Assembly (NCBI GenBank): GCA_020723805.1
Contig: DYID01000015.1
Coordinates: 41,322-97,247 of the forward strand
Direction of reading: 5' to 3'
Source of the DNA: Anaerolinea sp.
GTDB taxonomy: Bacteria; Chloroflexota; Anaerolineae; Anaerolineales; Villigracilaceae
DNA length: 55,926 nucleotides
Each line of letters begins with the position of its first letter. The stretch's first letter is position 1. Made by a program: the position numbers and the translations under genes. Below the pieces are notes generated by a model. That model was not told the DNA's origin, did not search any database, and saw only the letters and a list, made by a program, of their open reading frames with translations. Below, in pieces: positions 24,926 to 49,248 of this stretch.

Positions 24926-24940
24926 AAAGTCGGCTGCGTA

Positions 24941-24962
24941 TTCTGCGCTCTCTAGCGCAGAA
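24941..24962. repeat. Hairpin repeat, type I (CTCT loop)
   Basis: Perfect 9-bp arms TTCTGCGCT and AGCGCAGAA around CTCT, preceded by CTGCGTA. It lies in the 115-bp gap before the nucleotidyltransferase. No T-tract follows. Confidence 0.85.
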
Positions 24963-25040
24963 CGAAAGATAGATGCGCCGGATGCGCTTTCCAGGAATTT
25001 TGCAACAGAGCAAAAACGATATATCTTTTACAGAGAGGTC

Positions 25041-25796
25041 ATGATGGAGGAGTTGATTGGTTTGATCCCCGCGGCGGGGAAGGGCGTTCGGCTTGGTCTG
25101 CCGTATCCGAAGGAACTGTATCCCGTCATTCGTAACAATCATTACAAGCCCATTTCGCAGTTTGTGGTGGATAATCTGGTCAATGCCGGGTTGAAGCACA
25201 TCGTCTTTGTCATCAACGAGACCAAGCATCAGTTGATTGGCTATTTCGGCAACGGGATGCGCTTCGGCTGCGACATCAGTTATGTGGTGCAGGAAGTGGT
25301 GGAGGGCAAGACCAAATCCACCTCGCCGGGGCTGGCGCACGCGCTGGATTCGGCGTATCACCTCGTCAAGGGTAAGACGGTCTTTTTCGGCATGGCGGAT
25401 ACGCTCATGAAGCCCAACGACATCTTCAAGCGGGTCTATGCCGCCGCCTCGCCCGAGGACGATGTGCTGCTGGGCATGTTCACCACTGACCGCCCCGAAA
25501 AGTTCGGCATGGTGCGCATGGACGGGAACAACCGCGTGCTCGAAATCGTGGACAAGCCCAAACAGACCGACCTCACGCAGATGTGGGGCTGCATCGTCTG
25601 GCGTCCAAAGTTCACCGAGTATTTGCACAAGTGCGTCTTCGAGGAGGGCGTCTCCGATTTTGCGAAGATCATGAATGACGCCATCGCGCTGGGGATGAAG
25701 TTCAAGGGCGTGCACATGGAAAACGGCACGTACATTGACCTCGGCACCTACGACGAGATCGCCGAACTGGACCGCAAATATCGAGGGGAGGAGTAA
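25041..25796 (+). CDS. Sugar-phosphate nucleotidyltransferase
   Basis: 251 residues (ATG 25041, or 25044 one codon later; AGAGAGG lies just upstream). The N-terminus EELIGLIPAAGKGVRLGLPY with PKELYPV is the nucleotide-binding loop of glucose-1-phosphate nucleotidyltransferase-like enzymes (G-x-G-x-R-L then P-K-x-L). Later, GMADTLMKPNDIF supplies the metal-binding Asp, EKFGMVRMD and VDKPKQTD form the sugar-binding strands, and GTYIDLGTYDEI closes the fold. It should activate a sugar-1-phosphate with NTP to give the donor for neighbouring GTs. Which sugar and which nucleotide cannot be decided; the GKGVRLG loop is a variant of the usual GxGTRL. The stop abuts the next ATG (TAAATG). Confidence 0.88.
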   Translation: MMEELIGLIPAAGKGVRLGLPYPKELYPVIRNNHYKPISQFVVDNLVNAGLKHIVFVINETKHQLIGYFGNGMRFGCDISYVVQEVVEGKTKSTSPGLAHALDSAYHLVKGKTVFFGMADTLMKPNDIFKRVYAAASPEDDVLLGMFTTDRPEKFGMVRMDGNNRVLEIVDKPKQTDLTQMWGCIVWRPKFTEYLHKCVFEEGVSDFAKIMNDAIALGMKFKGVHMENGTYIDLGTYDEIAELDRKYRGEE

Positions 25797-26753
25797 ATGT
25801 CGGCAACGATGACTCAGGCAAAGGTACAGGAAAGAAGCGGCGAAGCGGTCGTGGATATGTCGGTGGTGCTGGTGTGCTGGAACAACAAGGCGTATCTCGA
25901 TCCGTGTTTGAAATCCCTTTATGAGGGCGGGTTGAAGTGTTCGTTCGATGTGGTGGTGGTGGATAACGGCTCGACGGACGGTAGTCAGCAGATGCTGGCG
26001 GAGAAGTATCCGCAGGTGAAGTTGATTCAGAACGCGGGCAATGTGGGCTTGGGCAAGGCGAGCAATCAGGGCATCGAGGCGACGAACGGACGCTATGTGC
26101 TGCTGCTGAACAACGATACGATTGTGAACGGTCCCGCGCTGGATGTGCTGGTGGAATATCTGGATGCGCATCCCGAAGCAGGCGCGGCGGCGGGAAAACT
26201 GCTCAACCCCGACGGTTCGTTCCAGTCGGGATATGCGCCGTTTTCCACGCTGCTGGAGGAGTTCCTGATTGTCACGCACATCGGCGAGAGGTTGTGGACC
26301 GGCTATCCCTCGCATGGCGATTCGAACGAAATCAAGGAAACGGGCTGGATGAGTTCGGCGTGCCTATTGGTGCGCCGCGCCGCGCTGGAACAGGTGGGCT
26401 TGCTCGACGAGAGTTACTTCATCTACGGCGACGAGGCGGATTTGCAGTACCGCCTGAACAAGGCAGGCTGGAAGGTGGTCTTTTTGCCGAACTCCGCCAT
26501 CATCCACTTCGGCGGGCGGAGCATGGACCGCTGGAAGCGCCGCAAGATGGTCTATCGCGGCAAGATGATGTTCTACAAAAAGAACTACGGCTTTTTCAAG
26601 ACCTTGCTCCTGCGGGCAATGTTCTTCGTGATGAGCCTGTTGAAACTGCTCGTCTGGTGTGTGCTGTTCTTCATCCCCAGCCGCAACGACCAGGCAAAGA
26701 AGGAATTACGCTCGAACCTCGAAGTAATGGGGTTGTGCCTTAACTTGAAGTAG
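25797..26753 (+). CDS. GT2 glycosyltransferase (rhamnosyltransferase-like)
   Basis: 318 residues. The ribosome site GAGGGGAGGAG lies 3-13 bases before ATG 25797; another possible start is the ATG at 25857, which gives MSVVLVCWNN. Motifs are VVVDNGSTDGSQQML, LLLNNDTIV (the NND form of DxD) and a late YGDEADLQYRLNKAGWKV, all usual for the WcaA/rhamnosyltransferase group. A hydrophobic segment near the C-terminus (TLLLRAMFFVMSLLKLLVWC) probably anchors it to the membrane. Directly coupled to the nucleotidyltransferase, so it may use that enzyme's product. Confidence 0.92.
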   Translation: MSATMTQAKVQERSGEAVVDMSVVLVCWNNKAYLDPCLKSLYEGGLKCSFDVVVVDNGSTDGSQQMLAEKYPQVKLIQNAGNVGLGKASNQGIEATNGRYVLLLNNDTIVNGPALDVLVEYLDAHPEAGAAAGKLLNPDGSFQSGYAPFSTLLEEFLIVTHIGERLWTGYPSHGDSNEIKETGWMSSACLLVRRAALEQVGLLDESYFIYGDEADLQYRLNKAGWKVVFLPNSAIIHFGGRSMDRWKRRKMVYRGKMMFYKKNYGFFKTLLLRAMFFVMSLLKLLVWCVLFFIPSRNDQAKKELRSNLEVMGLCLNLK

Positions 26754-26761
26754 TTTTTTAT

Positions 26762-26839
26762 CCGCTGATCTTCGCCAATCTCCGCGAATTGCTTGGGGCT
26801 TGTCATTCAGATTTCGTGCAGATTGGCGTGGATTGGCGG
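26762..26839. repeat. Inverted-repeat element built from GATTGGCG-type units, family P3
   Basis: Left arm 26762-26788 (CCGCTGATCTTCGCCAATCT...) and right arm 26813-26839 (...GATTGGCGTGGATTGGCGG) pair at about 21 of 27 positions. TGTTTTTTGA follows, so in RNA the structure could also act as a weak terminator. Confidence 0.7.
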
Positions 26840-26855
26840 ATGTTTTTTGAACCCT

Positions 26856-28085
26856 ATGAACATTCTCTTCCTCACGCAAATCGTTCCCTTCCCGCCCGAT
26901 GCGGGACCCAAGGTAAAGACCTATCACGTCATCCGCGCCCTCGTGGAGCAGGGACATGCTGTAACTCTGGTGTCGTTTGTCCGTCCAGAAGAAGTGCGAT
27001 ACTTGCCTGCTCTGCAGTCCATCTGCAAAGCGGTTCATGCCGTACCGATTCGCAGGTCGCGGCTTGCGGACGCCTTTTACATGCTGAGAAGTTACCTCAC
27101 GGGACGCCCCTTCCTCATCGAGCGCGATGACCTGCGCCCGATGCAGGCGATGGTCAACCGGCTGGTGCGGGAAAACGACTTCCACTTCATCCACGCCGAC
27201 CAGTTGACGATGGTGCAGTTCGCCCTGCGGGGCGCGGCGGCGGCAGGCAACAAGCCTAGGGTCATCTTCGACGCGCACAACGCCGTGTGGACCATCGTGG
27301 AGCGGATGAAGGACAATGCCCGCTGGTTTCTCAAGCCGGTTTTGTCCGTCGAGGCGGCGCGCGTCAAACGCTACGAAGGCGGACTGCTGCGGATGGTGGA
27401 TCACGTCCTCGCCGTCACCGATATTGACCGCGGTCTGCTCGAAGAAGCGCTGCACGTTTCCAAGCCGGCAAGCAACGGTCGCATTGCCCCCGTCACCGTC
27501 ATCCCGATTGCGGTGGATACGCAGAAACTCCAGCCCGTGCGCCGCAAGCCCGGCTCGAAGAACATCGTCACGCTCGGCACACTGCACTACCCGCCCAACG
27601 CCGACGGCATTCGCTGGTTCTTCACCGAGGTCTTCCCGCTGGTGCGCGAGCGCGTGCCAGACGCCACACTGACCATCATCGGCAAGAACCCGCCGCAGGA
27701 TTTCATCGAATTGGCGGAGCGCAGTGCAGGCGTCATCAAGGTGACGGGCTATGTGGATGATTTGCGCCCGTATCTGGAGGAGAGCGCGTTGATGGCGGTG
27801 CCGGTGCGGGCGGGCGGCGGGATGCGGGTGCGCATCCTCGAAGCCTTTGCCTACGCCATGCCCGTCGTCACGACCACCGTTGGGCTGGAGGGCATCCATG
27901 CCGCGCCCGGTCACGATGTCATTGTGGCGGATACGCCCGCCGAGTTTGCCAGCCGCACGGCGGAACTCTTGCAGGATATTTCCCTGCAGGACAAACTGGC
28001 GGCGAACGGACGCAAACTGGCAACAGAGAAGTACGACTGGCAGGCGGTGTTATCTGCCATGCGTCCGATTTACGAGCAAGTGTAG
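26856..28085 (+). CDS. GT4 glycosyltransferase
   Basis: 409 residues from ATG 26856; the frame is open further left, but that part is repeat DNA. MNILFLTQIVPFPPDAGPKV gives the acceptor-side loop, and the donor domain has VTLGTLHYPPNADGIRWFFT and AGGGMRVRILEAFAYAMPVV with TTVGLEGI. This is the same GT4 subgroup as 22290 and 52903. Similar proteins in exopolysaccharide loci are often annotated as WcaI/Pel-type transferases, but the sugar specificity here is open. Confidence 0.92.
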   Translation: MNILFLTQIVPFPPDAGPKVKTYHVIRALVEQGHAVTLVSFVRPEEVRYLPALQSICKAVHAVPIRRSRLADAFYMLRSYLTGRPFLIERDDLRPMQAMVNRLVRENDFHFIHADQLTMVQFALRGAAAAGNKPRVIFDAHNAVWTIVERMKDNARWFLKPVLSVEAARVKRYEGGLLRMVDHVLAVTDIDRGLLEEALHVSKPASNGRIAPVTVIPIAVDTQKLQPVRRKPGSKNIVTLGTLHYPPNADGIRWFFTEVFPLVRERVPDATLTIIGKNPPQDFIELAERSAGVIKVTGYVDDLRPYLEESALMAVPVRAGGGMRVRILEAFAYAMPVVTTTVGLEGIHAAPGHDVIVADTPAEFASRTAELLQDISLQDKLAANGRKLATEKYDWQAVLSAMRPIYEQV

Positions 28086-28184
28086 AAAACGTTCTCGACT
28101 TTACAAGTTGCTGTTACGCAGTTTTTTGTAGCGCGACACATTGTCCCCCATGGGGATTTATGCCGCCCGAAAAAAAGATGCGTA

Positions 28185-28206
28185 GGACACGTTCTCTAAC
28201 GTGTCC
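28185..28206. repeat. Hairpin repeat, type I (CTCT loop)
   Basis: Perfect 9-bp arms GGACACGTT and AACGTGTCC around CTCT, preceded by GATGCGTA. Confidence 0.88.
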
Positions 28207-28245
28207 ACCGGCGCAAGAGAGCGCCGAATACGCAATTACCGCGCA

Positions 28246-28267
28246 GGAAACGTTCTCCAACGTTTCC
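28246..28267. repeat. Hairpin repeat, type I (CTCC loop)
   Basis: Perfect 9-bp arms GGAAACGTT and AACGTTTCC around CTCC, preceded by CCGCGCA. The stem differs from that at 28185 at two positions per arm, and both arms changed together. Confidence 0.88.
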
Positions 28268-28280
28268 GCCCAAAGGATTT

Positions 28281-29627
28281 ATGAGCAGAGAGAACCCGAC
28301 CAACCAGAGAGCCATCTTCAAACGCATCAAGGCGCAGCCGCTGATGGCGATTCTCTTCGTCTCGGTTGCGCTGCGGCTTGCAGTGGCATTCCTCATGGGC
28401 AATCAGGTGGTGGAACTGCCCGGCATCTTCGACCAGGTCTCGTATCACAACCTTGCCATTCGCGTGCTGGGCGGGCACGGCTTCACCTTCGGCGAATTGT
28501 GGTGGCCCCTCACCCGTGCGGGCGAACCGACGGCACACTGGTCCTTCCCCTACACCCTCTATCTAACCGGCGTGTACGCGCTCTTCGGCGTCTATCCGCT
28601 GGCGGGGCGCATCCTGCAGGCAATCATCGTCGGCGTTTTGCATCCATACATCACCTACCGCATCGGCGAAAAAGCCTTCGGGCGGACAATCGGTCTCCTC
28701 GCTGCCGCCGTCGTCTCCATATACATCTACTACGTCTATTACGGTGCGGCGCTCATGACCGAACCGTTCTACATCACGGGCATCCTCTTCAGCCTGTATT
28801 TCGCCATGCTGTTGGCGGAGAACGCCGACCGCAAACGCGACCTCCCCCTCGCTTTCGCGTTGGGAATTTCTTTGGGACTCACGGTCACACTGCGGCAGGT
28901 CTTTCTGCTCTTCCTGCCATTCCTCTTCCTGTGGATGTGGATCGCCCGCTTCCGACTCCGCCGAAGCCTGCCTCTGCTTCCCACAGCCTTATCCTTCGCC
29001 CTGCTCTTTGCCTTCATCCTGCCGATTACGTTCTTCAACTACGCCCGCTTTCATCGCTTTGTGTTGCTCAACACCAATTCGGGTTATGCCTTCTTCTGGG
29101 GCAATCATCCCCTCTACGGGACGAAGTTCATCCCCATCCTCTCCACGCCCGAATACCAAGCGATGATCCCCGAAGAAGTCCGTCATTTGGACGAAGCGGC
29201 GCTCGACAGTGAACTACTCAAGAGGGGCATCCAGTTCGTCGTCCAGGACCCGAAGCGTTACGTCCTGTTGTCGCTGAGCCGCATTCCGCCCTACTTCATG
29301 TTTTGGTATTCGTCCGAATCCAGCACGTTGAGCAATCTCTCACGCATCGGAAGTTTCGGAGTCTTCCTGCCGTTCATGCTCTATGGATTGATTCTGGGCG
29401 TTCGCAGGAAACCCTTTTGGTCGCTCGTTTTTTCCCCGCAGGGACTCCTGCTCCTGTTTGCGCTGGTCTATTCGGGCGTACACATCCTCACGTGGACGCT
29501 CATCCGCTACCGCCTGCCCGTGGACGCGGTGATGATTCCCTTTGCCGCGCTGGCATTGCACGATTTGGCGCAGCGGCTTTCGGTGAAGTTTCCCGTTTTT
29601 CAACGATTGAGTAAGGTCGGAGAGTGA
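28281..29627 (+). CDS. GT39-like integral-membrane glycosyltransferase
   Basis: 448 residues with about eleven hydrophobic segments and a GT-C fold layout. The first extracytoplasmic loop has PGIFDQVSYHNLAIRVLGGH, where a D-x/D-E acidic pair normally contacts the polyprenyl-phosphate sugar donor. The segment TAHWSFPYTLYLTGVYALFG is also typical of PMT_2-type proteins. Such enzymes transfer a sugar from a lipid phosphate donor to protein, lipid or glycan on the outer membrane face. The donor could be made by the DPM-like GT2 at 50394. Deoxysugar or mannose specificity cannot be called. Confidence 0.85.
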   Translation: MSRENPTNQRAIFKRIKAQPLMAILFVSVALRLAVAFLMGNQVVELPGIFDQVSYHNLAIRVLGGHGFTFGELWWPLTRAGEPTAHWSFPYTLYLTGVYALFGVYPLAGRILQAIIVGVLHPYITYRIGEKAFGRTIGLLAAAVVSIYIYYVYYGAALMTEPFYITGILFSLYFAMLLAENADRKRDLPLAFALGISLGLTVTLRQVFLLFLPFLFLWMWIARFRLRRSLPLLPTALSFALLFAFILPITFFNYARFHRFVLLNTNSGYAFFWGNHPLYGTKFIPILSTPEYQAMIPEEVRHLDEAALDSELLKRGIQFVVQDPKRYVLLSLSRIPPYFMFWYSSESSTLSNLSRIGSFGVFLPFMLYGLILGVRRKPFWSLVFSPQGLLLLFALVYSGVHILTWTLIRYRLPVDAVMIPFAALALHDLAQRLSVKFPVFQRLSKVGE

Positions 29628-29628
29628 T

Positions 29629-30807
29629 ATGAAGAAATTGAATCGTGTGACGGTGATTGTGCTGGACGGCGTTGGGGCAGGGGAGGCGCCCGATGCCGCG
29701 GCATACGGCGATGTGGGCAGTAACTCGCTCGGCAACGTGGCGCGCGCCATCGGCGGGTTGAACGCGCCCAATATGTACGAACTCGGCTTGGGCAATATCA
29801 CCGCCATTCAGGGTGTGCCGCCCAATCCACACGCAAAGGGCGCTTTTGGTCGTTTTCAGCCCCGTTCGGCGGGCAAGGACACGGTCATCGGTCACTGGGA
29901 GATGATGGGCATCTATCTGCCGGTGGCGTTTCCCACCTACCCCAATGGCTTCCCGCCCCAAGTGCTGGAGCCGTTTCGCAAGGCAATCGGGTGCGATGTG
30001 TTGGGTAACAAGCCTGCCTCCGGCACCGAAATCCTCAAAGAACTCGGCGTCGAACACATGCGGACGGGCAAGCCCATCGTGTACACCTCCGCCGACAGCG
30101 TCTTTCAGATTGCCGCGCACGAGGAAGTCATTCCGCTCGAAGAACTCTACCGTATGTGCCAGATCGCCCGCGACATTCTGCAGGGCGAACATGGCGTGGG
30201 GCGCGTCATTGCCCGTCCCTTCCTCGGCGATTCGCCCGAAACCTTCAAACGCACGACGCACCGCAGGGACTATCCGCGCAACCCCGAATACCCCACCATG
30301 ATGCAGAAACTCGTGGATGCCGGCAAGGACGTGTACTCCGTCGGCAAAATTGACGACATCTTCAACCATCAGGGCATCACCAAAAAGAACCACGTCCTCA
30401 CCAACAAGGAAAGCCTCGATGTCACGCTCCAACTGCTGGAAGAGGACTTCGAGGGCTTGCTGTTTGTCAACCTCATCGAGTTCGACATGATCTACGGTCA
30501 CCGCAACGACCCGCGCGGTTACGCCGACGCGCTCGAGCAGTTCGACTCCTACCTGCCCGAAATCCAGAAACGCCTCAAACCCGGCGACCTGGTCATCGTC
30601 ACCGGCGATCACGGCGTGGACCCCACCACGCCCGGTACCGACCACTCGCGCGAATACGTCCCTCTGCTGGCGTTTGGTCCGCAAATCAGGCATGGTGTGG
30701 ACCTCGGCGACCGCGACACCCTCGCCGACATCGCCGGCACGCTGGCGGAAATCTTCTCGCTCGAACCGCAGCCGATTGGCAAAAGTTTTTTGAAAGAGAT
30801 TGTGTAA
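29629..30807 (+). CDS. deoB: Phosphopentomutase
   Basis: 392 residues, the normal length. It interconverts (deoxy)ribose-1-phosphate and (deoxy)ribose-5-phosphate in nucleoside salvage, in the cytoplasm. Diagnostic segments are VTVIVLDGVGAGEAPDAAAY (metal Asp), SAGKDTVIGHWEMMG with the Thr that carries phosphate, the RDYPRNPE-type cap residues, KIDDIFNHQGIT, and GDHGVDPTTPGTDHSREYVP with the second metal site. Start ATG 29629 follows the GT39-like stop by one base. A housekeeping enzyme in the middle of a surface-glycan locus is unexpected. It may simply have been carried along, or pentose-1-phosphate may feed a nucleotide-sugar branch. Confidence 0.97.
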   Translation: MKKLNRVTVIVLDGVGAGEAPDAAAYGDVGSNSLGNVARAIGGLNAPNMYELGLGNITAIQGVPPNPHAKGAFGRFQPRSAGKDTVIGHWEMMGIYLPVAFPTYPNGFPPQVLEPFRKAIGCDVLGNKPASGTEILKELGVEHMRTGKPIVYTSADSVFQIAAHEEVIPLEELYRMCQIARDILQGEHGVGRVIARPFLGDSPETFKRTTHRRDYPRNPEYPTMMQKLVDAGKDVYSVGKIDDIFNHQGITKKNHVLTNKESLDVTLQLLEEDFEGLLFVNLIEFDMIYGHRNDPRGYADALEQFDSYLPEIQKRLKPGDLVIVTGDHGVDPTTPGTDHSREYVPLLAFGPQIRHGVDLGDRDTLADIAGTLAEIFSLEPQPIGKSFLKEIV

Positions 30808-30809
30808 TC

Positions 30810-30825
30810 GGCGTTCTCCAACGCC
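30810..30825. repeat. Hairpin repeat, type I (short, CTCC loop)
   Basis: Perfect 6-bp arms GGCGTT and AACGCC around CTCC, three bases after the deoB stop. Preceded by GTGTAATC, a degraded form of the usual lead-in. Confidence 0.8.
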
Positions 30826-30861
30826 TTTGATTCTCGAAATTATGTTGGCAGGATTTGCTCA

Positions 30862-31944
30862 ATGAAAATCGTCTCCGTCGTTGGGGCGCGCCCCGAATTC
30901 ATTCAATCTGCTCCCGTCAGCCGCGCCCTTCGCAAACAACATCAGGAACTGCTCGTCCACACCGGTCAGCACTACGACTATCTCATGTCGCAGACCTTCT
31001 TCGACGAACTCGGCATCCCCGCGCCCGATTACAACCTCGAAGTCGGCTCCGGCTCTCATGCGGGTCAAACCGCCGAAATCCTCGTCCGCTTTGAAGAAGT
31101 GCTCCTCAAAGAGAAGCCCGACTGCGTCATCGTGCGCGGCGACACCAACTCCACGCTGGCGGGGGCATTGGCGGCGAGCAAACTGCACATCCCCACCGTT
31201 CACATCGAAGCGGGCGAGCGCAGTTTCGACCGCCGCATGCCCGAGGAAATCAACCGCCTCGTCGCCGACCGCCTCGCCTCTGCCTTCTTCTGCGTCAGCC
31301 AGACCGCCGTGCGGCATCTCGCGGCGGAGGGCATCACGAAAAATGTCTATTGGGTGGGCGACGTGATGCTGGACGCCAACCTTGCCAACCGCCCTCTGGC
31401 GCGGCAAAAATCAACGGTTCTTTCCACGCTTGGGCTTGCTCCCGGTTCCTATGGCTTGGTTACTGTCCACCGCGCCGCCAACACCGACGATCCCGCGCGG
31501 CTGGCGAACATCGTCACCGCCCTCAGTCGGGTCGGCGAGACGGTGATTTTTCCCGTCCATCCGCGCACGCGCGGCGCATTGAGCAGGCTCAACGTGCGCT
31601 TTGGCGATAACGTCCGCCTCATCGAACCCGTCGGCTACTTCGACATGATGGTGCTGGAGGAGAATGCCAGGATCATTGCAACGGATTCGGGCGGGGTCCA
31701 GCGCGAGGCGTATTTCATGTCCAAGCCCTGCCTCACCCTGCGCGACGAAACCGAATGGAGCGAAACCGTCGAGGCGGGCTGGAACAAACTCGTCGGCGTG
31801 GATGTGGCGACCATCGTCCGCGAATGGCAGACCTTCACGCCGCCCGCCGAACAGCCTCCCATCTTCGGCGACGGACATGCCGGCGAGAAGATTGCGGAGA
31901 TACTGGGTAATTTGTCCTTATCAATCACGCCCCTTACACGGTAG
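30862..31944 (+). CDS. wecB: UDP-N-acetylglucosamine 2-epimerase, non-hydrolysing (WbpI/WecB family)
   Basis: 360 residues, GT-B-like epimerase fold. It inverts C2 of a UDP-GlcNAc-type sugar in the cytoplasm. Motifs: VGARPEFIQSAPVSRAL, VHTGQHYDYLMSQTFF, VIVRGDTNSTLAGALAASKL, HIEAGERSFDRRMPEEINRL, VTVHRAAN, FPVHPRTRG and ATDSGGVQREAYF. The GDTNSTLAGALAASKL and MPEEINR forms resemble WbpI-type enzymes that epimerise 2,3-diacetamido sugars more than E. coli WecB, so it may serve the oxidoreductase/acetyltransferase/aminotransferase set at 49414-52889, 18 kb downstream. That link is inference; plain UDP-ManNAc synthesis is the alternative. Confidence 0.93.
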   Translation: MKIVSVVGARPEFIQSAPVSRALRKQHQELLVHTGQHYDYLMSQTFFDELGIPAPDYNLEVGSGSHAGQTAEILVRFEEVLLKEKPDCVIVRGDTNSTLAGALAASKLHIPTVHIEAGERSFDRRMPEEINRLVADRLASAFFCVSQTAVRHLAAEGITKNVYWVGDVMLDANLANRPLARQKSTVLSTLGLAPGSYGLVTVHRAANTDDPARLANIVTALSRVGETVIFPVHPRTRGALSRLNVRFGDNVRLIEPVGYFDMMVLEENARIIATDSGGVQREAYFMSKPCLTLRDETEWSETVEAGWNKLVGVDVATIVREWQTFTPPAEQPPIFGDGHAGEKIAEILGNLSLSITPLTR

Positions 31945-31992
31945 GGCGAGATTGATCTCGTCGCTTTCAGCGACATGAATGTCGCGCTACGA
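31932..31992. repeat. Palindromic intergenic element, family P1 (short form)
   Basis: Overlaps the end of the epimerase gene. Contains CTTACACGGTAGGGCGAGAT, TGATCTCG, then the palindrome GCGACAT-GA-ATGTCGC and GCTACGAG. The central CCCCTTGCAGGG segment of the full copies is missing. Confidence 0.75.
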
Positions 31993-32003
31993 GTGGCGCG
32001 TAG

Positions 32004-32023
32004 CAGACGTTCTCTAACGTCTG
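32004..32023. repeat. Hairpin repeat, type I (CTCT loop)
   Basis: Perfect 8-bp arms CAGACGTT and AACGTCTG around CTCT, preceded by GCGCGTAG. Confidence 0.87.
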
Positions 32024-32052
32024 TGTGACGAAAAAATGAAAGTGGATTTATC

Positions 32053-33372
32053 ATGACCAACACACACCAACCAACCATCGGCATCATCGGCGGCGGCATC
32101 ATGGGCATCAGCCTGGGCTATTTCCTCTCGAAACAGGGAGCCGCCGTCACCATCTATGAAGCGTCCCCCGTTCTCGGCGGGCTGGCAGGACCCATTACCC
32201 TCGAAGACGGCACGCAGGTGGACCGCTTCTATCATGCCATCCTCTCCAGTGACCGTCACCTGCGCGGCTTGTGCGAGGAACTCGGCATCGCCGATCAGTT
32301 GCGCTTCAAAGAGACCAAGACGGGCTTCTACTACAAAAACGCCATCCACCCGATGAACAACATCATCGAGTTCCTCAAATTCCCGCCGCTCGGCTGGATT
32401 GACCGCTTCCGCCTGGGGTTGACCGTGCTGGCGGCGCAGTTCATCAAGGACTGGCGCAGCCTCGAATCGGTCAGCGTGCAGGACTGGCTGTTGAAATGGA
32501 GCGGCAGGAACACCTTCCAAAACATTTGGCGCCCCATGCTCAAAGCCAAATTCGACGGCGGCTTCGACGACGTTCCTGCCACGTGGATTTGGGCGCGGCT
32601 TGTCCGCATGAAGTCCACGCGCGAGGGCGCGAATCAGAAGGAGATGGCGGGTCACCTCATTGGCGGCTACATCACCCTCATCCAGGCGATGACTGAAAAA
32701 ATCAAGGCAAACGGCGGGAAGGTGCTGCTTCAAACTCCCGTCAAGGAAATCGTCATCGAAGGCGGCAGGGCGGTGGGCATCCGCCTTGCCAGCGGCGAAG
32801 TGGTGGCTTACGACAAAGTGGTCTGCACCATGCAGGCGCCCGTTTTCCAGCGCCTCATCCCCAACGCCGACCCCGACTACCAGGCGGCTCTCATTCGGAC
32901 CGAATACCTGGGCATCATCGCCCCGCTTCTCGTCCTGACCCGACCCCTGACCGGCAACTGGACGTTGAACATCACCGACGACCGCTTCCCCTTCACCGGC
33001 GTCATCGAAACCACCGCCTATATTGACCCGAAATACGTTGGCGGCTATCACCTGGTGTACCTGCCCAAGTACACCGCGCCAAACAGCGAGTGGCAAAAGA
33101 TGAGCGACGATGAAATCAAACGCATCTGGCTCGAAAACCTGCAAGCCATGTTCCCCCATTTCGACCCCGCGGCCATCAAATATTTCCTCATTCACCGCGA
33201 GCGTTACGTCGAGCCGCTGCACGGGTTGAACGATACCGACTCCATGCCGCAGGTCAAAACTCCCGTCGAAAACTTGTACCTTGCCACCACCGCCCAAATC
33301 TACCCTGCACTGACCAACGGCGAGTCGGTCAGCCGCCATGCGCGCGAAGCGGCGGAAATCGTTCTGGCATAG
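32053..33372 (+). CDS. NAD(P)/FAD-dependent amine-oxidase-fold oxidoreductase
   Basis: 439 residues. The N-terminus TIGIIGGGIMGISLGYFLSK is the FAD-binding GxGxxG loop, followed by the usual Glu (IYEASPVLGGLAGP) that holds the ribose. The rest follows the protoporphyrinogen-oxidase/UDP-galactopyranose-mutase-like layout, with HLIGGYITLIQAM and a C-terminal LATTAQIYPALTNGESVSRH closing the flavin site. Members of this family are common in exopolysaccharide loci, where they may oxidise or isomerise a sugar nucleotide or lipid carrier. The substrate is not known. Start ATG 32053 lies after repeat DNA, without a strong ribosome site. Confidence 0.87.
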   Translation: MTNTHQPTIGIIGGGIMGISLGYFLSKQGAAVTIYEASPVLGGLAGPITLEDGTQVDRFYHAILSSDRHLRGLCEELGIADQLRFKETKTGFYYKNAIHPMNNIIEFLKFPPLGWIDRFRLGLTVLAAQFIKDWRSLESVSVQDWLLKWSGRNTFQNIWRPMLKAKFDGGFDDVPATWIWARLVRMKSTREGANQKEMAGHLIGGYITLIQAMTEKIKANGGKVLLQTPVKEIVIEGGRAVGIRLASGEVVAYDKVVCTMQAPVFQRLIPNADPDYQAALIRTEYLGIIAPLLVLTRPLTGNWTLNITDDRFPFTGVIETTAYIDPKYVGGYHLVYLPKYTAPNSEWQKMSDDEIKRIWLENLQAMFPHFDPAAIKYFLIHRERYVEPLHGLNDTDSMPQVKTPVENLYLATTAQIYPALTNGESVSRHAREAAEIVLA

Positions 33373-33380
33373 CCGACCTT

Positions 33381-33448
33381 CCTGCGCAGCGGACGCTCCT
33401 GCGCAGTGGACGCTCCTGCGCAGTGGACGCTCCTGCGTAGTGGACGCT
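33381..33448. repeat. 17-bp tandem repeat, four units
   Basis: Units start at 33381, 33398, 33415 and 33432 with consensus CCTGCGCAGTGGACGCT. The unit equals the lead-in plus left arm of the type I hairpin that follows; only the last unit has a right arm. Confidence 0.92.
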
Positions 33449-33462
33449 CTCTAGCGTCCACT
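33439..33462. repeat. Hairpin repeat, type I (CTCT loop)
   Basis: Perfect 10-bp arms AGTGGACGCT and AGCGTCCACT around CTCT, preceded by CTGCGT. Confidence 0.88.
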
Positions 33463-33535
33463 TGGGAGCGGCGCCAGTGAGCGCCAGATACGCCAGCGGT
33501 TACGCAGCGTCCCATATAATGTTTGGAGAGAGTAA

Positions 33536-34114
33536 ATGGAAAAAACAGATCCCATCATCATCGTCTCTGGTCTGCCGCGTTCGGGCACTTCCATGATGAT
33601 GAAAATGCTCGAAGCCGGCGGATTGCCCATCCTGACCGACAACCTGCGCACCCCCGACGCCAACAACCCCAACGGTTACTACGAGTTCGAACGCGTCAAA
33701 CAATTGCCGGAGGGCGACTACGGCTGGCTTCCCGAGGCGGGCGGCAAAGTCGTCAAAATCGTGACCGGTCTCATCATGCACTTGCCCCCGGGGTACAAGT
33801 ACAAGGTCATCTTCATGCAGAGGGCGATGAAGGAAGTGCTTGCCTCTCAGAAGAAAATGCTTGGTCGCCTTGGCAAAGAGGATGACAAGGTGGAGGACGA
33901 AAAGATGCGCAAGATTTATCAGGAACACCTCAAGCAGGTGAACGCCTGGCTTGCCAAACAGCCCAACTTCGAGGTGCTGTATGTCAATTACAATACGATG
34001 CTGGCAGAGCCGCTCGAGTCGCTCAAAAAGGTCAATGAGTTCCTGGGCGGCGGCATGGACGTGAACGTCATGGCGGGGGTGGTGAATAAAGAGTTGTATC
34101 GAGAGAGAAAGTAA
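33536..34114 (+). CDS. Short P-loop sulfotransferase-like protein
   Basis: 192 residues. DPIIIVSGLPRSGTSMMMKM is the 5'-phosphosulfate-binding loop of PAPS sulfotransferases, and KVIFMQRAMKEVLASQKKML matches the 3'-phosphate region (Arg and Ser spaced as usual). It is shorter than typical carbohydrate sulfotransferases (250-350 residues) but complete at both ends, and matches compact bacterial members. It would transfer sulfate to a hydroxyl on a glycan or lipid in the cytoplasm. With the neighbouring alkaline-phosphatase-fold genes this suggests an anionic polymer. No PAPS synthesis genes are in the window. The GTTTGGAGAG ribosome site supports ATG 33536. Confidence 0.82.
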   Translation: MEKTDPIIIVSGLPRSGTSMMMKMLEAGGLPILTDNLRTPDANNPNGYYEFERVKQLPEGDYGWLPEAGGKVVKIVTGLIMHLPPGYKYKVIFMQRAMKEVLASQKKMLGRLGKEDDKVEDEKMRKIYQEHLKQVNAWLAKQPNFEVLYVNYNTMLAEPLESLKKVNEFLGGGMDVNVMAGVVNKELYRERK

Positions 34115-34125
34115 AAGGAGTGCGT

Positions 34126-34149
34126 AGCCGACGTTCTCTAACGTCGGCT
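34126..34149. repeat. Hairpin repeat, type I (CTCT loop)
   Basis: Perfect 10-bp arms AGCCGACGTT and AACGTCGGCT around CTCT, preceded by GTGCGT. It starts 12 bases after the sulfotransferase stop. Confidence 0.88.
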
Positions 34150-34183
34150 TATCAAGAAAATGATGGAGTAGAAAGGAAAAGAT

Positions 34184-34426
34184 ATGAACCTGTTTATCAA
34201 CCTGTTCAGCCTGATGGGACCGCTGCGCCCGCCTGAATATTTGGGACCTGAAACGCTCATGCCGCTGGCGTCCATTCTGGCGGCAATCGCCGGGTTCTTC
34301 CTGTTGTTCTGGCGGATCATCGTGAAGTTTGTCAAGACTTTGTATCGCAAGGTGCGCGGTCTGCCCGATGAAGTCCCGCCGGAGGTGGATTTGGACGACC
34401 CCACCGAAGAAGAGCAGGAGAAATAA
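34184..34426 (+). CDS. Small single-pass membrane protein of unknown function
   Basis: 80 residues. I do not recognise a family. One clear membrane helix lies at about residues 27-48 (PLASILAAIAGFFLLFWRII), followed by a basic segment (KFVKTLYRKVRG) and an acidic tail (EVDLDDPTEEEQEK). By the positive-inside rule the tail should be cytoplasmic. AAAGGAAAAG lies just before ATG 34184. It sits between the sulfotransferase and the phosphodiesterase-like gene, so it may tether or regulate one of them. Its good ribosome site and normal codon use support a real gene. Confidence 0.75.
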   Translation: MNLFINLFSLMGPLRPPEYLGPETLMPLASILAAIAGFFLLFWRIIVKFVKTLYRKVRGLPDEVPPEVDLDDPTEEEQEK

Positions 34427-34429
34427 AGA

Positions 34430-34456
34430 GTTGCGCGAGCCTTAGACTTGCGCAAC
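34430..34456. repeat. Hairpin repeat, type II (CGAG/CTTG)
   Basis: Arms GTTGCGCGAG and CTTGCGCAAC (one G-T wobble) around CCTTAGA. It lies three bases after the stop of the small membrane protein, with no T-tract. Confidence 0.8.
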
Positions 34457-34471
34457 AGCGATACGGACACG

Positions 34472-36313
34472 ATGAAAAAAGTCATAGTCATTGGATTGGA
34501 CGGTTTCGAGCCGAAGATCGCCGAGGCGATGATGGCGCGCGGCGAACTGCCCAACCTGCAAAAAGTGCGGGAACAGGGCGGTTATTCGCGCCTGGGCACC
34601 ACCTACTCCGCGCAGACGCCGGTGGCGTGGTCCACTTATTCCACCGGGACAAATCCCGGCGGTCATGGCATCTTCGATTTCCTCAGCCGCGACCCCAAGA
34701 CCTATCTGCCGGTCATGGCGCTCAGCCGTTACGAGCAGAAGAACGCCTTTGTGCTTCCCAGGGTGGTGAACATGCGGCGCGGCACACCTTTTTGGGATTT
34801 GCTCTCCGCCAGAGACGTGCCCTCCACCATTCTGCGCGTGCCGTGCGCTTACCCGCCGGACCCGGTCAAGGGACGCATGCTTTCCGGCGTCGGTGTGCCC
34901 GACCTGCGCGGCGGCTTCGGCACGCCCACCTTTTACTCCACCCGCCAGAACCTGCACGCCGACCAGAGCGAGAAGGTGATCGCCGTCCGCGTGGAAAATG
35001 ACCGGGTGGCGACGCAGGTCATCGGTCCGCGTGACCCGAAGACCAAGTCCGATCACAAGTTCGACATCCACATCCAAATCGTCCGCGCGGAAAATAAAAT
35101 CATCATCACCTCGCAGGGTCAGCCCGACAAACTGGAAGTGCAGTTGGGCAAATGGAGCAAGTGGCTCAAGGTCAAATTCAAAGTGGGGATGATGCAGAGC
35201 GTGGCGGGCATCGTGCGCTTCAACCTGCGGCAGATCGAGCCGGAGTTCGAGTTGTATGCCTCGCCGGTCAACTTCGAGACCGAGGAGCCGCTCTTTCCCA
35301 TCAGCCACCCGAAGGAGTACGCCCACGAACTGGCAATGAAGATCGGGCGCTATTACACGGCGGGCATGGCGGAAGACCACGACGGCTTGAACCTCAACCG
35401 CTTCGACGAGGCAACCTATCTCGACCAGTGCCGCATTGTGATGCGCGAACGCCGCCGCATGATGGAATTCGAACTGGGCAGGTTCGAGCGCGGCTACTTC
35501 TACTGCCTGTACGATACGCCTGACCGCCTGGCGCACATGTTCTGGCGTTTCCGCGAGGCGGATCATCCCTCGAACCGTCATCACGGCTACAACCCCCAAT
35601 ATGCCAACGCCATCGAGGAACATTATCGCGAGTGCGATGCAGTGGTGGGCGAGGCGATGAAGGCGGTGGATGACGAAACGCTTTTCATCGTCCTCAGCGA
35701 TCACGGCATGAACTCGTTCCAGCGCGGTTTGAACCTCAACACCTGGCTGTACGAGAACGGTTTCCTTGCGCTCAAGCCCGGCATCCAGCCCGGCGAAAGC
35801 GGCGACTTCTTCGAGAACGTGGATTGGGATAACACCAAAGCCTATGCCCTGGGTTTGGGCTGTATCTTCCTCAACCTCAAAGGGCGCGAAGCCAACGGCA
35901 TCCTCAACGAAGAGCAAGCCGAGCAAACCCGTGAGGGCATCGTCAAAGGGTTGACCGGGCTGGTGGACGCCGAACGCGGCGCGGCGGCGGTGCGAAGCGT
36001 TTCGCGGCGCGAGCAAGTGTACAGCGGTCCCTATTTGGACGAAGCACCCGACCTGCTGGTCAACTTCTCCGAGGGCTATCGCGTCTCGTGGGATACGCCG
36101 CTGGGCGGTGTGCCGCGCGGCTTGTTCGCCGACAATCACAAACGCTGGGGCGGCGACCACGTCATTGACCCCGCGCTGGTGCCGGGGGTGCTGTTCATGA
36201 ACCGCAAGTTCCGCGCCGAGTCGCCCAGTCTCGTGGACCTCGCGCCGACGATTTTGAACGTCTTCGGTGTGCCGAAAAACGCCGAAATGGAAGGGAGCGA
36301 TTTGCTGTCATGA
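34472..36313 (+). CDS. Alkaline-phosphatase-superfamily phosphodiesterase/nucleotide-pyrophosphatase-like enzyme
   Basis: 613 residues from ATG 34472; the in-frame TTG at 34448 lies inside the hairpin repeat and is rejected. The N-terminus KKVIVIGLDGFEPKIAEAMM supplies the first metal Asp (D9), and QTPVAWSTYSTG the likely Thr nucleophile (T49). VLSDHGMNSFQRGLNL (about D410-H411) and the preceding acidic region complete the two-metal site. The C-terminus SLVDLAPTILNVFGVP is typical of the superfamily. No signal peptide is seen, so it acts in the cytoplasm or is peripheral. Proteins of this type (PF01663) hydrolyse phosphodiesters or pyrophosphates, perhaps a nucleotide sugar or phosphoglycan here. 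The next gene overlaps by ATGA. Confidence 0.88.
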   Translation: MKKVIVIGLDGFEPKIAEAMMARGELPNLQKVREQGGYSRLGTTYSAQTPVAWSTYSTGTNPGGHGIFDFLSRDPKTYLPVMALSRYEQKNAFVLPRVVNMRRGTPFWDLLSARDVPSTILRVPCAYPPDPVKGRMLSGVGVPDLRGGFGTPTFYSTRQNLHADQSEKVIAVRVENDRVATQVIGPRDPKTKSDHKFDIHIQIVRAENKIIITSQGQPDKLEVQLGKWSKWLKVKFKVGMMQSVAGIVRFNLRQIEPEFELYASPVNFETEEPLFPISHPKEYAHELAMKIGRYYTAGMAEDHDGLNLNRFDEATYLDQCRIVMRERRRMMEFELGRFERGYFYCLYDTPDRLAHMFWRFREADHPSNRHHGYNPQYANAIEEHYRECDAVVGEAMKAVDDETLFIVLSDHGMNSFQRGLNLNTWLYENGFLALKPGIQPGESGDFFENVDWDNTKAYALGLGCIFLNLKGREANGILNEEQAEQTREGIVKGLTGLVDAERGAAAVRSVSRREQVYSGPYLDEAPDLLVNFSEGYRVSWDTPLGGVPRGLFADNHKRWGGDHVIDPALVPGVLFMNRKFRAESPSLVDLAPTILNVFGVPKNAEMEGSDLLS

Positions 36314-36927
36314 ACATTCTGGTTTTGAACTTTCCGGGCGCCGAACGCGCCGTCTTGTTCAACGACGAACGCCTCGAAAACCTGCGCCGCCTGATGGACA
36401 TGGGATGCTTCGGCGCGCTTGCCGCCTCCGGCGAGTGGAACGTGCTTGCCCGTCAGGAGCATCACACCCTCACGCTCATGGAATACTTCCAGCAGGCGGA
36501 TAAACTCTGCGTGGACACCAGCGATCCCGTCACCCTGCGCGAAAAACTCTCGGTGGGGGATTGGGACTACCTCCAGTACACCGCCGCGTCTTTCCCCGCC
36601 GGTAACTGGTCTGCCGACGACTACCTTCGCCTCGACCGTGACCTGGGCGAGGCGCTCCAGGAACTGAGCGACGACACGGTCATCCTCATCCTCGGCAGGG
36701 ACTGCTTCGTGCTGGTCTCTGCCAACAATCCCCTCAGCGGGGAATACTTCGGCGGCGCTGCGGCAGACATTGCTCCCACGCTCGTGCAGTTGGCGGGCTT
36801 CCCGCTGCCCTCCGTCACGGAAGGCAGGTCGTGGGTGCAAGGCATGGAGTTGAACGACTCCTCGGGCCTCACCGCAGACGAACAGCAAATCCTGCGCGAC
36901 CGCCTGAGCGGACTTGGGTATGTTTAG
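36310..36927 (+). CDS. Alkaline-phosphatase-fold pseudoenzyme (predicted)
   Basis: 205 residues, start in an ATGA overlap with the phosphodiesterase-like gene. It resembles a shrunken copy of that superfamily. The N-terminal strand is MNILVLNFPGAERAVL where active members have a metal Asp (VIGLDGFE). VILILGRDCFVLVSANN stands where they have VLSDHG. The C-terminus ADIAPTLVQLAGFPLP keeps the family's closing segment, and the protein ends in GLGYV, as many phosphatase-fold proteins do. The nucleophile region is missing. I infer a catalytically dead partner or regulator of its coupled neighbour. No independent family was recognised, so this stays a reading of weak similarity. Confidence 0.72.
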   Translation: MNILVLNFPGAERAVLFNDERLENLRRLMDMGCFGALAASGEWNVLARQEHHTLTLMEYFQQADKLCVDTSDPVTLREKLSVGDWDYLQYTAASFPAGNWSADDYLRLDRDLGEALQELSDDTVILILGRDCFVLVSANNPLSGEYFGGAAADIAPTLVQLAGFPLPSVTEGRSWVQGMELNDSSGLTADEQQILRDRLSGLGYV

Positions 36928-36944
36928 TTTGCAGTTCAAGGCTT

Positions 36945-36976
36945 TTGTAGGGCAAGTTTATTGACTTGCCCTACAA
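36945..36976. repeat. Hairpin repeat, type II (13-bp perfect stem)
   Basis: Arms TTGTAGGGCAAGT and ACTTGCCCTACAA around TTATTG. It lies 17 bases after the pseudoenzyme stop in a 129-bp gap. It could work as a terminator stem, but only TCTT follows. Confidence 0.85.
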
Positions 36977-37056
36977 TCTTCAAAAGACAACATACGCAGG
37001 CGCACCCCTGCAACTTATCGGATGTTTGAACACTGATTGACGACTTGGAAGTGACC

Positions 37057-38904
37057 ATGAAAAAATTCGATACTGCGACGACAAAACAAATCCTTCGATA
37101 CGCTGTCTGGTTCGGTCTGCTGACCGGGCTGGTGGAAGGCGCACTGCTCTACACCCTCAGAACGTTCGAACTGCTGAAGGGACAAATCACCTACCTCGGC
37201 TCCGGCTGGCAGGTGATGTGGATTGCGCCGATTTTCGACGCGCTGTTGTTTCTGCTCGCCGGGGCGGGGCTGGCGGCATTGACGCTGTTCCTCCCTCAGG
37301 TTTGGGTGAAGCGGCTGGCGTTATTCACCTTCTCCTTCCTGATGGCGTTTTCCTGGCTGGGAACAATTCTCTCCGGGAGGCTGTCGCCGGTGGCGTTCAT
37401 CATTCTGGCGGCGGGGATCGGCTATCAGTTGTCGCTGACCCTCTTCGAGCGTGAGAAACGATTCGCGCCGTTCGTGGGCAGAACCGTCAAAGGGCTGAGC
37501 GTCTTCGTTCTCCTTGTGCTGGTCGTCGTCCAAAGCGGGTATTGGTTGAAGGAACAGGTTGCCGTGCGGAATCTGCCGCCGGCGAAAGAGTCTGCGCCGA
37601 ACGTGCTGTGGATTGTCATGGACACCCTGCGCGCCGACCACATGTCGCTGCACGGTTACGAGCGCGTCACCGATCCCTACCTCGTCAGCCTTGCCGAACA
37701 GAGCGTGGTATTCGATAACGCCTACGCCACTTCCTCCTGGACGTTGACCTCGCACGCCTCCCTCTTCACCGGGCGCTGGCCCTACGAACACAAAGCCGAC
37801 GGCGGACGTCACCTCGACGCCACCTACCCGACCATTGCCGAGGCGCTCGCCGCACGCGGCTACCGCACCGGCGCCTTCAACGGCAACTTCGAGACCGTCA
37901 CCAGCCGCTGGGGTTTTGCCCGCGGCTTTCATCACTTCGAGGATTACTACCAGACCCTTCCGCAACTGGCGGTCAGTTCCTTTTACGGCAGGTTCCTGGA
38001 GTATTACGTCCTGCACAAGGTCTTCAACATGGAATTTTCCATTGACCGCCGCTGGGCGCCCGGCATCAACCAGTCGGCGCTGGAATGGATCGGGCAGGAT
38101 AGCGGCAAGCCCTTCTTCGCCTTCATCAACTATTACGACATCCACGCGCCCTACATCTCCCCCGAACGCGCCCGCTTCTCCGAACTCGAAAACCCCGGCG
38201 GGCTGGTCAACACCGACTGGACGACCGCCGACATTTACAATGCCAAGACCCCCGAACAGGTGCAGGGCGAAATTGACGCCTACGATGGCGGCATCTACTA
38301 CACCGACCAGCAAATCAAACTCCTGATGGAAGAGATGCAGCGCCGCGGCTGGCTCGAAAACACCATCGTCGTCATCACCTCCGATCACGGCGAACTCTTC
38401 GGCGAACATGGGCTTTGGGAACATCACAATTCGCTCTACCGTCCGGTCATCTATGTGCCGCTCATCATCTGGTATCCCAAAGCCGTGCCGCAGAACCTGC
38501 GCATCGAGACGCCCGTCTCCAACGCCGCCCTGCCCGCCACCATGCTCGACTTGCTCGGCGAACCGGCGCAGGACCTCTTCCCCGGTCCCTCGCTCGCGGA
38601 ACTCTGGCGCGACCCCGCCTCGGCGGCTCGCTTCCCGGACCCGATTGCTGAGATGGCGGAATCGCCCTGGGTCAACCCGAATCATCTTTCCATCAAGGGC
38701 GATATGGTCAGCGTGATTTCCTCCGACTGGCAATACATCGAACACGAATACAACGGCGTCGAACTCTACAACCTGAAGGACGACCCCGACCAGTTGCACA
38801 ACCTCGCCGCCAAACAGCCCTCGGCGCTGAACCAACTCAAACAGTATTACCTCGACGCCATCGCCAAACTCGGTCTCACCTGGCCCTACGACATCGAAAA
38901 ATGA
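37057..38904 (+). CDS. Membrane-anchored sulfatase-fold transferase/hydrolase (Thr-type, LtaS-like layout), copy 1
   Basis: 615 residues from ATG 37057 (TTG 37045 and GTG 37051 in the same frame are less likely). Five hydrophobic segments fill residues 13-165, followed by a large extracytoplasmic sulfatase-fold domain. PNVLWIVMDTLRADHMSLHG gives the metal Asp. The nucleophile region reads SSWTLTSHASLFTG, with Thr229 where formylglycine sulfatases have Cys (C-x-P-S-R). VVITSDHGELFGEHG (D443-H444) forms the second metal site. Five helices plus a Thr nucleophile is the arrangement of LtaS-type phosphoglycerol transferases, so a phosphotransferase adding a charged group to a surface polymer is at least as likely as a sulfatase. 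The next gene is a tandem paralogue. Confidence 0.88.
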   Translation: MKKFDTATTKQILRYAVWFGLLTGLVEGALLYTLRTFELLKGQITYLGSGWQVMWIAPIFDALLFLLAGAGLAALTLFLPQVWVKRLALFTFSFLMAFSWLGTILSGRLSPVAFIILAAGIGYQLSLTLFEREKRFAPFVGRTVKGLSVFVLLVLVVVQSGYWLKEQVAVRNLPPAKESAPNVLWIVMDTLRADHMSLHGYERVTDPYLVSLAEQSVVFDNAYATSSWTLTSHASLFTGRWPYEHKADGGRHLDATYPTIAEALAARGYRTGAFNGNFETVTSRWGFARGFHHFEDYYQTLPQLAVSSFYGRFLEYYVLHKVFNMEFSIDRRWAPGINQSALEWIGQDSGKPFFAFINYYDIHAPYISPERARFSELENPGGLVNTDWTTADIYNAKTPEQVQGEIDAYDGGIYYTDQQIKLLMEEMQRRGWLENTIVVITSDHGELFGEHGLWEHHNSLYRPVIYVPLIIWYPKAVPQNLRIETPVSNAALPATMLDLLGEPAQDLFPGPSLAELWRDPASAARFPDPIAEMAESPWVNPNHLSIKGDMVSVISSDWQYIEHEYNGVELYNLKDDPDQLHNLAAKQPSALNQLKQYYLDAIAKLGLTWPYDIEK

Positions 38905-38923
38905 GTACGGATATCGCGTAACG

Positions 38924-38939
38924 GGCGTTTTCTAACGCC
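38924..38939. repeat. Hairpin repeat, type I (short, TTCT loop)
   Basis: Perfect 6-bp arms GGCGTT and AACGCC around TTCT, preceded by TCGCGTAAC. The arms equal those at 30810, but the loop and flanks differ. Confidence 0.83.
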
Positions 38940-38957
38940 GACTCTGCACCCAATGAA

Positions 38958-42829: not shown

Positions 42830-43006
42830 CTTGTAACGCGACATTAATGTCGCGCTACGAAATGCGGCAGTATTGTCGCGCTACGAAATGCGGCGGTAAT
42901 GTCGCGCTACGAAATGCGGCGGTAAGCCGGATGTGCAAGACAAATCTCGCCCTGCCGCGTAAGGCAAATTTCTGACAACTTAGACCGACTCTTAAAGGAG
43001 AGAATC
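42830..43006. other. 177-bp intergenic region made of P1-type repeats
   Basis: Opens with the palindrome GCGACATT-AATGTCGC (42838-42853), continues into a 26-bp x3 tandem array, and ends with a P1 end segment in reverse orientation (GACAAATCTCGCCCTGCCGC then GTAAGG, near 42940-42965). AAAGGAGAG precedes the next ATG. Confidence 0.8.
42849..42926. repeat. 26-bp tandem repeat, three units
   Basis: Units start at 42849, 42875 and 42901. Each begins GTCGCGCTACGAAATGCGGC followed by A/GGTA and two variable bases. The unit is the end of the P1 element amplified in place. Confidence 0.92.
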
Positions 43007-49226: not shown

Positions 49227-49248
49227 GGATGCGCTCTCTGACGCATCC
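49227..49248. repeat. Hairpin repeat, type I-like (7-bp stem)
   Basis: Arms GGATGCG and CGCATCC around CTCTCTGA, preceded by CGCGCA. A decayed member: two pairs next to the loop are lost. Confidence 0.7.

What the first reader, a model, noticed from the sequence alone, without database searches (positions are those of the whole stretch)
24941..38939. A family of perfect mini-hairpins with constant CTCT-like loop and co-varying stems
Seven strict copies and several looser ones lie in the gaps between 24.9 and 49.3 kb: 24941-24962, 28185-28206, 28246-28267, 30810-30825, 32004-32023, 33439-33462, 34126-34149, 38924-38939 and a decayed one at 49227-49248. All have a 4-base loop CTCT, CTCC or TTCT closed by ..GTT/AAC.. 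or ..GCT/AGC... Their stems have different sequences (GGACAC, GGAAAC, TTCTGC, CAGAC, AGCCGAC, AGTGGAC, GGC), yet each stem pairs perfectly. Most are preceded by TGCGTA or a close form (CTGCGTA, GATGCGTA, CGCGTAG, GTGCGTAG, CGCGTAA). Constant loop and lead-in with compensated stems suggests selection on folded nucleic acid, as a protein-binding hairpin, an RNA processing site or the footprint of a hairpin-copying element. No T-tract follows, so they are not ordinary terminators.
Basis: seen in the sequence. Interest (0 to 1): 0.8.

Follow-up and report, generated by a model that had tools for sequence, protein, structure and literature searches.

The report
Mobile REP hairpins with free stems
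The small hairpins scattered between these genes look like copies of a repetitive extragenic palindrome (REP) family, whose likely partner transposase sits in sister genomes, and they are notable because many different stem sequences occur as long as the two arms pair.

Summary
All nine listed hairpins are present, plus two minus-strand partners that were missed. The core CGYTCTCTARCG occurs 120 times in the 3.69 Mb genome against 1 for the reversed control. Outer stem positions vary but stay paired: in the own genome pairs 5 to 8 form in 62, 62, 49 and 42 of 65 copies, against 33, 34, 18 and 18 after shuffling. 66 of 69 copies lie in gene gaps.

They are best read as REP sequences: foot GCGTA, 6-9 bp stem, CTCT loop, often in head-to-head pairs. 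A REP-associated tyrosine transposase (RAYT) flanked by these hairpins occurs in 8 of 120 family genomes, on both sides in 7. It was not found in the window's own assembly. 22 loci of more distant RAYTs have none of these hairpins. Hairpin-free orthologous gaps indicate gain or loss.

New member of a known kind. Unusual: the freedom of the stem, a looser foot, and a heterodimer rule: partners in head-to-head pairs are less alike than random pairing gives.

The parts
24935..24963 (+). REP: foot TGCGTA, stem TTCTGCGCT, loop CTCT
   Evidence: 36.7 bits; shared with G014 (loop CTCC), not in G001 or G007
28179..28207 (+). REP: foot TGCGTA, stem GGACACGTT, loop CTCT; first half of a head-to-head pair
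   Evidence: 40.8 bits
28206..28234 (-).
   Evidence: (28.2 bits); the whole pair 28179-28234 folds as a clover with its feet paired
28240..28268 (+). REP: foot CGCGCA, stem GGAAACGTT, loop CTCC
   Evidence: 28.2 bits
30801..30829 (+). REP with short stem GGCGTT, loop CTCC
   Evidence: 21.8 bits; not seen in the matching gap of G001, G007, G006 or G003
31997..32025 (+). REP: foot CGCGTA, stem GCAGACGTT, loop CTCT
   Evidence: 43.1 bits
33434..33462 (+). REP: foot TGCGTA, stem GTGGACGCT, loop CTCT
   Evidence: 44.9 bits; the gap is 2 bp in G006, G009, G012 and G013
33467..33494 (-). weak REP partner on the - strand (loop CACT, 5 of 8 pairs)
   Evidence: only (score 16); not reported by the covariance model at E up to 5
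34121..34149 (+). REP: foot TGCGTA, stem GCCGACGTT, loop CTCT
   Evidence: 45.4 bits; compensated pair change against G001
38915..38943 (+). REP with short stem GGCGTT, loop TTCT
   Evidence: 26.0 bits
49221..49249 (+). decayed REP: foot CGCGCA, stem GGATGCGCT with a mismatch, loop CTCT
   Evidence: 17.6 bits, E 0.013

Best explanation
The hairpins are a REP family: non-autonomous elements that act as folded single-stranded DNA and are served by a REP-associated tyrosine (HUH, Y1) transposase. Inferred mechanism: the RAYT binds one strand of the folded element, reads the GTA foot and the CTCT loop with its fixed inner pairs, and needs a paired stem of about 8 bp but reads little of the outer stem. 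It nicks and joins single strands, so copies, often as head-to-head pairs, spread, and those in gaps between genes survive. A point mutation in the outer stem is tolerated when the opposite base follows, so stems drift through many sequences while foot, loop and pairing stay. Shown here: the family, covariation, pairs, gap location, a RAYT gene flanked by the same hairpins in sister genomes, and hairpin-free orthologous gaps. Inferred: binding, cutting and joining by this RAYT, and that it made the window's copies. No close RAYT was found in the window's own assembly, so these copies are either remnants or served by a gene that was lost or not assembled.
For: Core 120 against 1 control; covariation; 66 of 69 copies in gaps where 87% of bases are coding. 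A RAYT of about 178 aa: NCBIfam NF047646 at 118-120 bits, cut-off 80, only PDB match E. coli TnpArep 4er8, conserved HxH and Tyr in 8 of 8. Elements within 300 bp on both sides of the gene in 7 of 8 genomes, one side in the eighth; 0 in 22 loci of more distant RAYTs. All 8 genomes with the gene have 8 or more core copies, against 10 of 112 without (Fisher p 5e-8). Foot shifts with the protein: GCGTA at 94-100% identity, GTGTA or GATTA at 69-71%. Orthologous gaps with and without hairpins.
Against: No RAYT of this type in the own assembly at E up to 1e-10, nor in 9 other genomes with 8 or more copies, one of them (G011) a single contig. GTAG, the usual REP foot, is present in only 29 of 65 own copies, GTA in 46. 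The reversed-pattern control reaches 13 in some genomes, so a threshold of 8 is not far above noise there. No cutting, excision or movement was observed. The 120 genomes are related, so the Fisher test overstates independence.
Confidence: 0.92

Rival explanations
1. RNA hairpins (terminators, processing or stability elements) selected in transcripts, not mobile.
For: Gap location and strong covariation would also fit; REPs are known to act as RNA elements at times (PMC3733652 abstract).
Against: Strand is near balanced at codirectional junctions, 33 against 22. Terminator-like sites in 24.8-39.1 kb are not above shuffles, 12 against 15.1; one listed hairpin (30810) is among them. Close species lack the hairpin at the same junction, and copy number varies 0-157 within the genus.
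Confidence: 0.05
2. Mobile, but spread by something other than this RAYT, for example another Y1 transposase in the genome or a different mechanism.
For: The own genome has many copies and no close RAYT; other RAYT-like genes are present, L005 and L006 above the NCBIfam cut-off.
Against: None of the seven Y1_Tnp hits of the own genome has a strict CTCT hairpin within 1.5 kb; the flanked RAYT group is.
Confidence: 0.06
3. Chance palindromes or a plain 12-base motif without a stem constraint.
For: The 12-base core is itself a palindrome, so some pairing comes with it.
Against: 120 against 1; pairs outside the core covary; sliding the 3' arm by one column drops standard pairs from 87% to 28%.
Confidence: 0.01

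Closest known systems
GTAG REP families with RAYT genes (REPtrons): Nunvar 2010 PMC2817692, Di Nocera 2013 PMC3733652
   Same: Short perfect palindrome with a GTA(G) foot, high copy, in gaps, in inverted pairs, flanking a Y1/HUH RAYT; complementary stem changes within a family are described there.
   Different: Constant CTCT loop and inner pairs with a very free outer stem (15 outer 4-mers in 33 paired own copies); foot GCGTA with a variable next base; host Anaerolineales. GTAG repeats in Chloroflexi are mentioned in PMC3733652 (T. roseum, GTAG-23), but its figure with consensus sequences was not seen.
Group 3 TnpAREP recognition in Stenotrophomonas and Marinomonas (PMC8266576, passages)
   Same: There, loop bases and a perfect stem matter while parts of the stem tolerate change; the conservation pattern here fits that.
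   Different: No biochemistry here; RAYT group not assigned by a tree.
REPINs and BIMEs (Bertels and Rainey 2011 PMC3116915, passages)
   Same: Inverted REP pairs with a short spacer; compensatory changes noted there.
   Different: Partners nearly abut and are unlike, so most pairs fold as a clover (51 of 62); 42 of 90 own-genome elements are single.

Membership tests
REP (repetitive extragenic palindrome) | short palindrome in many copies per genome | tested here: met
   120 core copies; 131 covariance-model hits at E up to 0.01 in the own genome
REP (repetitive extragenic palindrome) | lies between genes | tested here: met
   66 of 69 in gaps by my own gene caller
REP (repetitive extragenic palindrome) | GTAG-like tetranucleotide at the 5' foot | tested here: inconclusive
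   GTA in 46 of 65 and GTAG in 29 of 65 own copies; PMC3733652 allows degenerate feet in some families but states over 90% conservation in most
REP (repetitive extragenic palindrome) | inverted pairs (BIME-like) | tested here: met
   19 HH, 5 TT, 1 HT neighbour pairs within 80 bp among 90 own elements, 42 single
REPtron | RAYT gene flanked by the REPs | tested here: met
   7 of 8 both sides, 1 of 8 one side; none in the own assembly
RAYT (TnpAREP) | Y1/HUH protein matching the RAYT family model | tested here: met
   NF047646 118.3 and 119.8 bits for two of the eight, cut-off 80; HxH and Tyr in 8 of 8
RAYT (TnpAREP) | cuts its own REP strand | not testable with these tools
   needs purified protein
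REPIN | the inverted pair is the unit that moves | not tested
   no population or excision data

The most novel reading that the evidence does not exclude
Stem diversity is driven by a heterodimer rule. In head-to-head pairs the two stems must differ so that each hairpin folds by itself; like stems would make one long perfect palindrome that is unstable or not readable. Rare stems are therefore favoured, and a transposase that ignores outer stem sequence lets them diversify. Di Nocera 2013 states that the preference for heterodimers has no obvious explanation and suggests protection from SbcCD; this family, with its many stems, would make that testable.
Probability: 0.35. Interest if true: 0.55.

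Novelty: new member of a known kind. Interest (0 to 1): 0.38.

Why it matters
It adds an apparently undescribed REP/RAYT family in Anaerolineales, a largely uncultured group. Because stems vary so widely around one loop, the family is a natural mutagenesis experiment: it suggests which bases a RAYT reads (foot, loop, inner pairs) and which only need to pair, and it gives a set of pairs large enough to ask why REP pairs avoid like partners.

Tried and rejected
No Rfam family at gathering scores in the window and no tRNA or tmRNA. The seven Y1_Tnp hits of the own genome have no strict CTCT hairpin within 1.5 kb (loci of 2.1-3.4 kb). Terminator reading: not above shuffles. Strand bias: not significant.

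Limits of my controls. In one search position 5 is biased, because 94 loci had been fetched with a pattern naming both arms there; one search repeats the count on loci chosen by the 12-base core. Heterodimers: 0 identical outer stems among 84 HH pairs against 3.9 expected (P 0.016); after collapsing to 62 pairs 0 against 2.9 (P 0.047), which is weak. The graded test (1.08 against 1.60 shared positions) and A5-A5 pairs (0 against 6.3) had 0 of 10,000 shuffles as low, but related copies are not independent, the A5 pattern was noticed on the same data, and perfect palindromes may be lost in short-read assembly. In tail-to-tail pairs A5-A5 is 5 against 6.2 (not significant) while shared positions are lower (P 0.0044). 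The in-silico like pairs fold as one hairpin nearly by construction; 4 of 62 real pairs also fold as one long hairpin and 7 as neither.

Gene calls are from a simple codon-usage script trained on 14 window ORFs, not a standard gene finder.

Literature: 0 papers held have both 'Anaerolineales' and 'repetitive extragenic palindromic'; searches with Chloroflexi or Anaerolineae and REP/RAYT terms list general REP papers and unrelated ones. 'Undescribed' rests on these searches of an open-access library only.
Full report
What is there. The nine hairpins are in the window as described. The window is gene-dense: a simple gene caller marks 94% as coding, all called genes on the + strand; Pfam hits of ten ORFs between 25.0 and 40.8 kb include glycosyltransferases, an epimerase, a sulfotransferase and two sulfatases. 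The head-to-head pair 28179-28234 folds as a clover with its feet paired, -22.3 kcal/mol as DNA, z -7.7.

Genome and relatives. The window lies in a 3.69 Mb, 54-contig genome. The core CGYTCTCTARCG occurs 57 + 63 times there against 1 + 0 for the reversed control; the covariance model gives 131 hits at E up to 0.01. In 17 other genomes of the genus counts run from 0 to 157, one sister-genus genome has 121, and 24 genomes of other families of the order have 0 to 3.

Anatomy and covariation. The element is NGCGTA, a nine-base left arm ending CGYT, loop CTCT, and the right arm. Among 65 own-genome copies chosen by the 12-base core, pairs 5, 6, 7 and 8 are Watson-Crick in 62, 62, 49 and 42, against shuffled means of 33, 34, 18 and 18 and maxima of 45, 43, 30 and 30; pair 9 is 30 against 25; positions 10 to 12 show no excess. 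All four pair types occur at positions 6, 7 and 8. 32 of the 65 have all eight pairs. On 100 aligned copies 169 cells change on both sides against 63 shuffled, score 0.444 against 0.172. A frequent subtype has A opposite G at position 7 (37 of 242).

Location. 66 of 69 own-genome copies (core with loop CTCT or CTCC) lie in gaps, while 87% of the bases examined are coding. Of the other three, one only touches a gene edge. Most loci were chosen because they hold a hairpin. At codirectional junctions 33 copies point with the genes and 22 against (p 0.18).

The transposase. PF01797 hits were sought in the own genome (7) and six hairpin-rich relatives (32, of which 30 became loci). Four of the 30 loci have CTCT hairpins close to the gene, and they are one protein group; two others have a single hairpin further off. 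The group matches the NCBIfam RAYT model (two proteins tested, 118.3 and 119.8 bits, cut-off 80), Pfam Y1_Tnp and, as only PDB hit, E. coli TnpArep 4er8. Among 120 family genomes it is present at 69-100% identity in 8; the next long hits are at 42% and below (one short piece at 50%). In 7 of 8, elements lie within 300 bp on both sides and in the eighth (G007) three lie on one side; neighbours at one gene have different stems; 22 loci of more distant RAYTs have none. Several of those carry other hairpins with a fixed inner core, such as CAGT-NNN-ACTG or CGCCG-TCCC-CGGCG. The foot shifts with the protein: GCGTA at 94-100% identity, GTGTA or GATTA at 69-71%. All 8 genomes with the gene have 8 to 157 copies; of the 112 without, 10 have 8 or more (Fisher p 5e-8). 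Those ten include the own genome (120), G019 (121), G014 (96) and G011, a single contig with 18 copies. Genes 94-95% identical in two genomes of another genus (G130, G141) suggest horizontal transfer; no tree was made.

Gain and loss. In matched gaps: the 163-bp gap of the 33434 element is 2 bp in G006, G009, G012 and G013 and 15 bp in G003, and holds a hairpin in G014, G007 and G001. The 195-bp gap of the 28179 pair is absent in G006, G009, G012, G013 and G003, where the genes overlap, and holds CTCT hairpins with other stems in G007 and G001. The 31997 gap is 4-32 bp without a hairpin in G006, G003, G009, G012 and G013. The 24935 element is shared with G014 only. The 34121 element is shared with G001 and absent from G014 and G007. 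The 30801 element was seen only in the own genome. Not every genome could be matched at every gap. The direction (gain or loss) is inferred from the more distant genomes having the short gap.

How stems change. At 34121 the window has A-T where G001 has G-C in the same flanks. In one genome a set of six flank-matched copies shows C-G, T-A and a mismatched C.A state at one pair. This fits mutation followed by compensation, on few cases (25 flank-matched pairs among 353 elements).

Heterodimers. Of 84 HH pairs none has identical outer stems. In 62 distinct pairs with loops up to 31 bp apart, partners share 1.08 of 4 outer positions against 1.60 for random pairing, and A5-A5 pairs are 0 against 6.3, both with 0 of 10,000 shuffles as low. 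51 of 62 fold as clovers, 43 with feet paired. Heterodimer preference is known and called unexplained in PMC3733652 (section 14 read).

Place among known things. Seen of the papers: PMC3733652, abstract, sections 5, 14 and 16 and passages; PMC2817692, PMC8266576, PMC6006769, PMC3116915 and PMC3686654, passages. [quoted passage not shown] PMC8266576 shows for group 3 RAYTs that loop bases and a perfect stem matter while parts of the stem tolerate change. The present family follows that logic and is filed as a new REP family with its RAYT, with a freer stem and a looser foot; the GTAG foot criterion is only partly met.

Noticed in passing
L007 (G000:C35) about 1338-2143 and 3153; window 42837-42854: Another RAYT-like gene of the own genome is flanked by a different hairpin family (GTAGTGCGACA, loop TTAA, and its complement); a hairpin with the same loop and inner stem is in the window.
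   Followed up: partly
window about 31923-31992 and 26754-26790: Two further short dispersed repeats in gaps: the first matches many places in G014, the second many in G012, G009 and G017.
   Followed up: no
window about 33380-33433; matching gap in G007: Tandem partial copies of foot plus left arm lie upstream of the 33434 hairpin; G007 has five such units of its own in the same gap.
   Followed up: no
window about 28080-28097 and the matching site in G014, G001, G007: A hairpin foot overlaps the stop codon (GCG-TAG) of the upstream gene; it is intact with different stems in G001 and G007 and decayed in the window and G014.
   Followed up: partly
L200-L203, L207, L209-L213, L215, L217, L219: RAYTs 28-42% identical to this one are flanked by their own hairpin families, each with a fixed loop and inner stem and varied outer stems.
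   Followed up: partly
G001 contigs C20, C25, C54 and others: A near-identical head-to-head pair sits at the ends of several contigs, as if it borders a longer repeat that broke the assembly.
   Followed up: no
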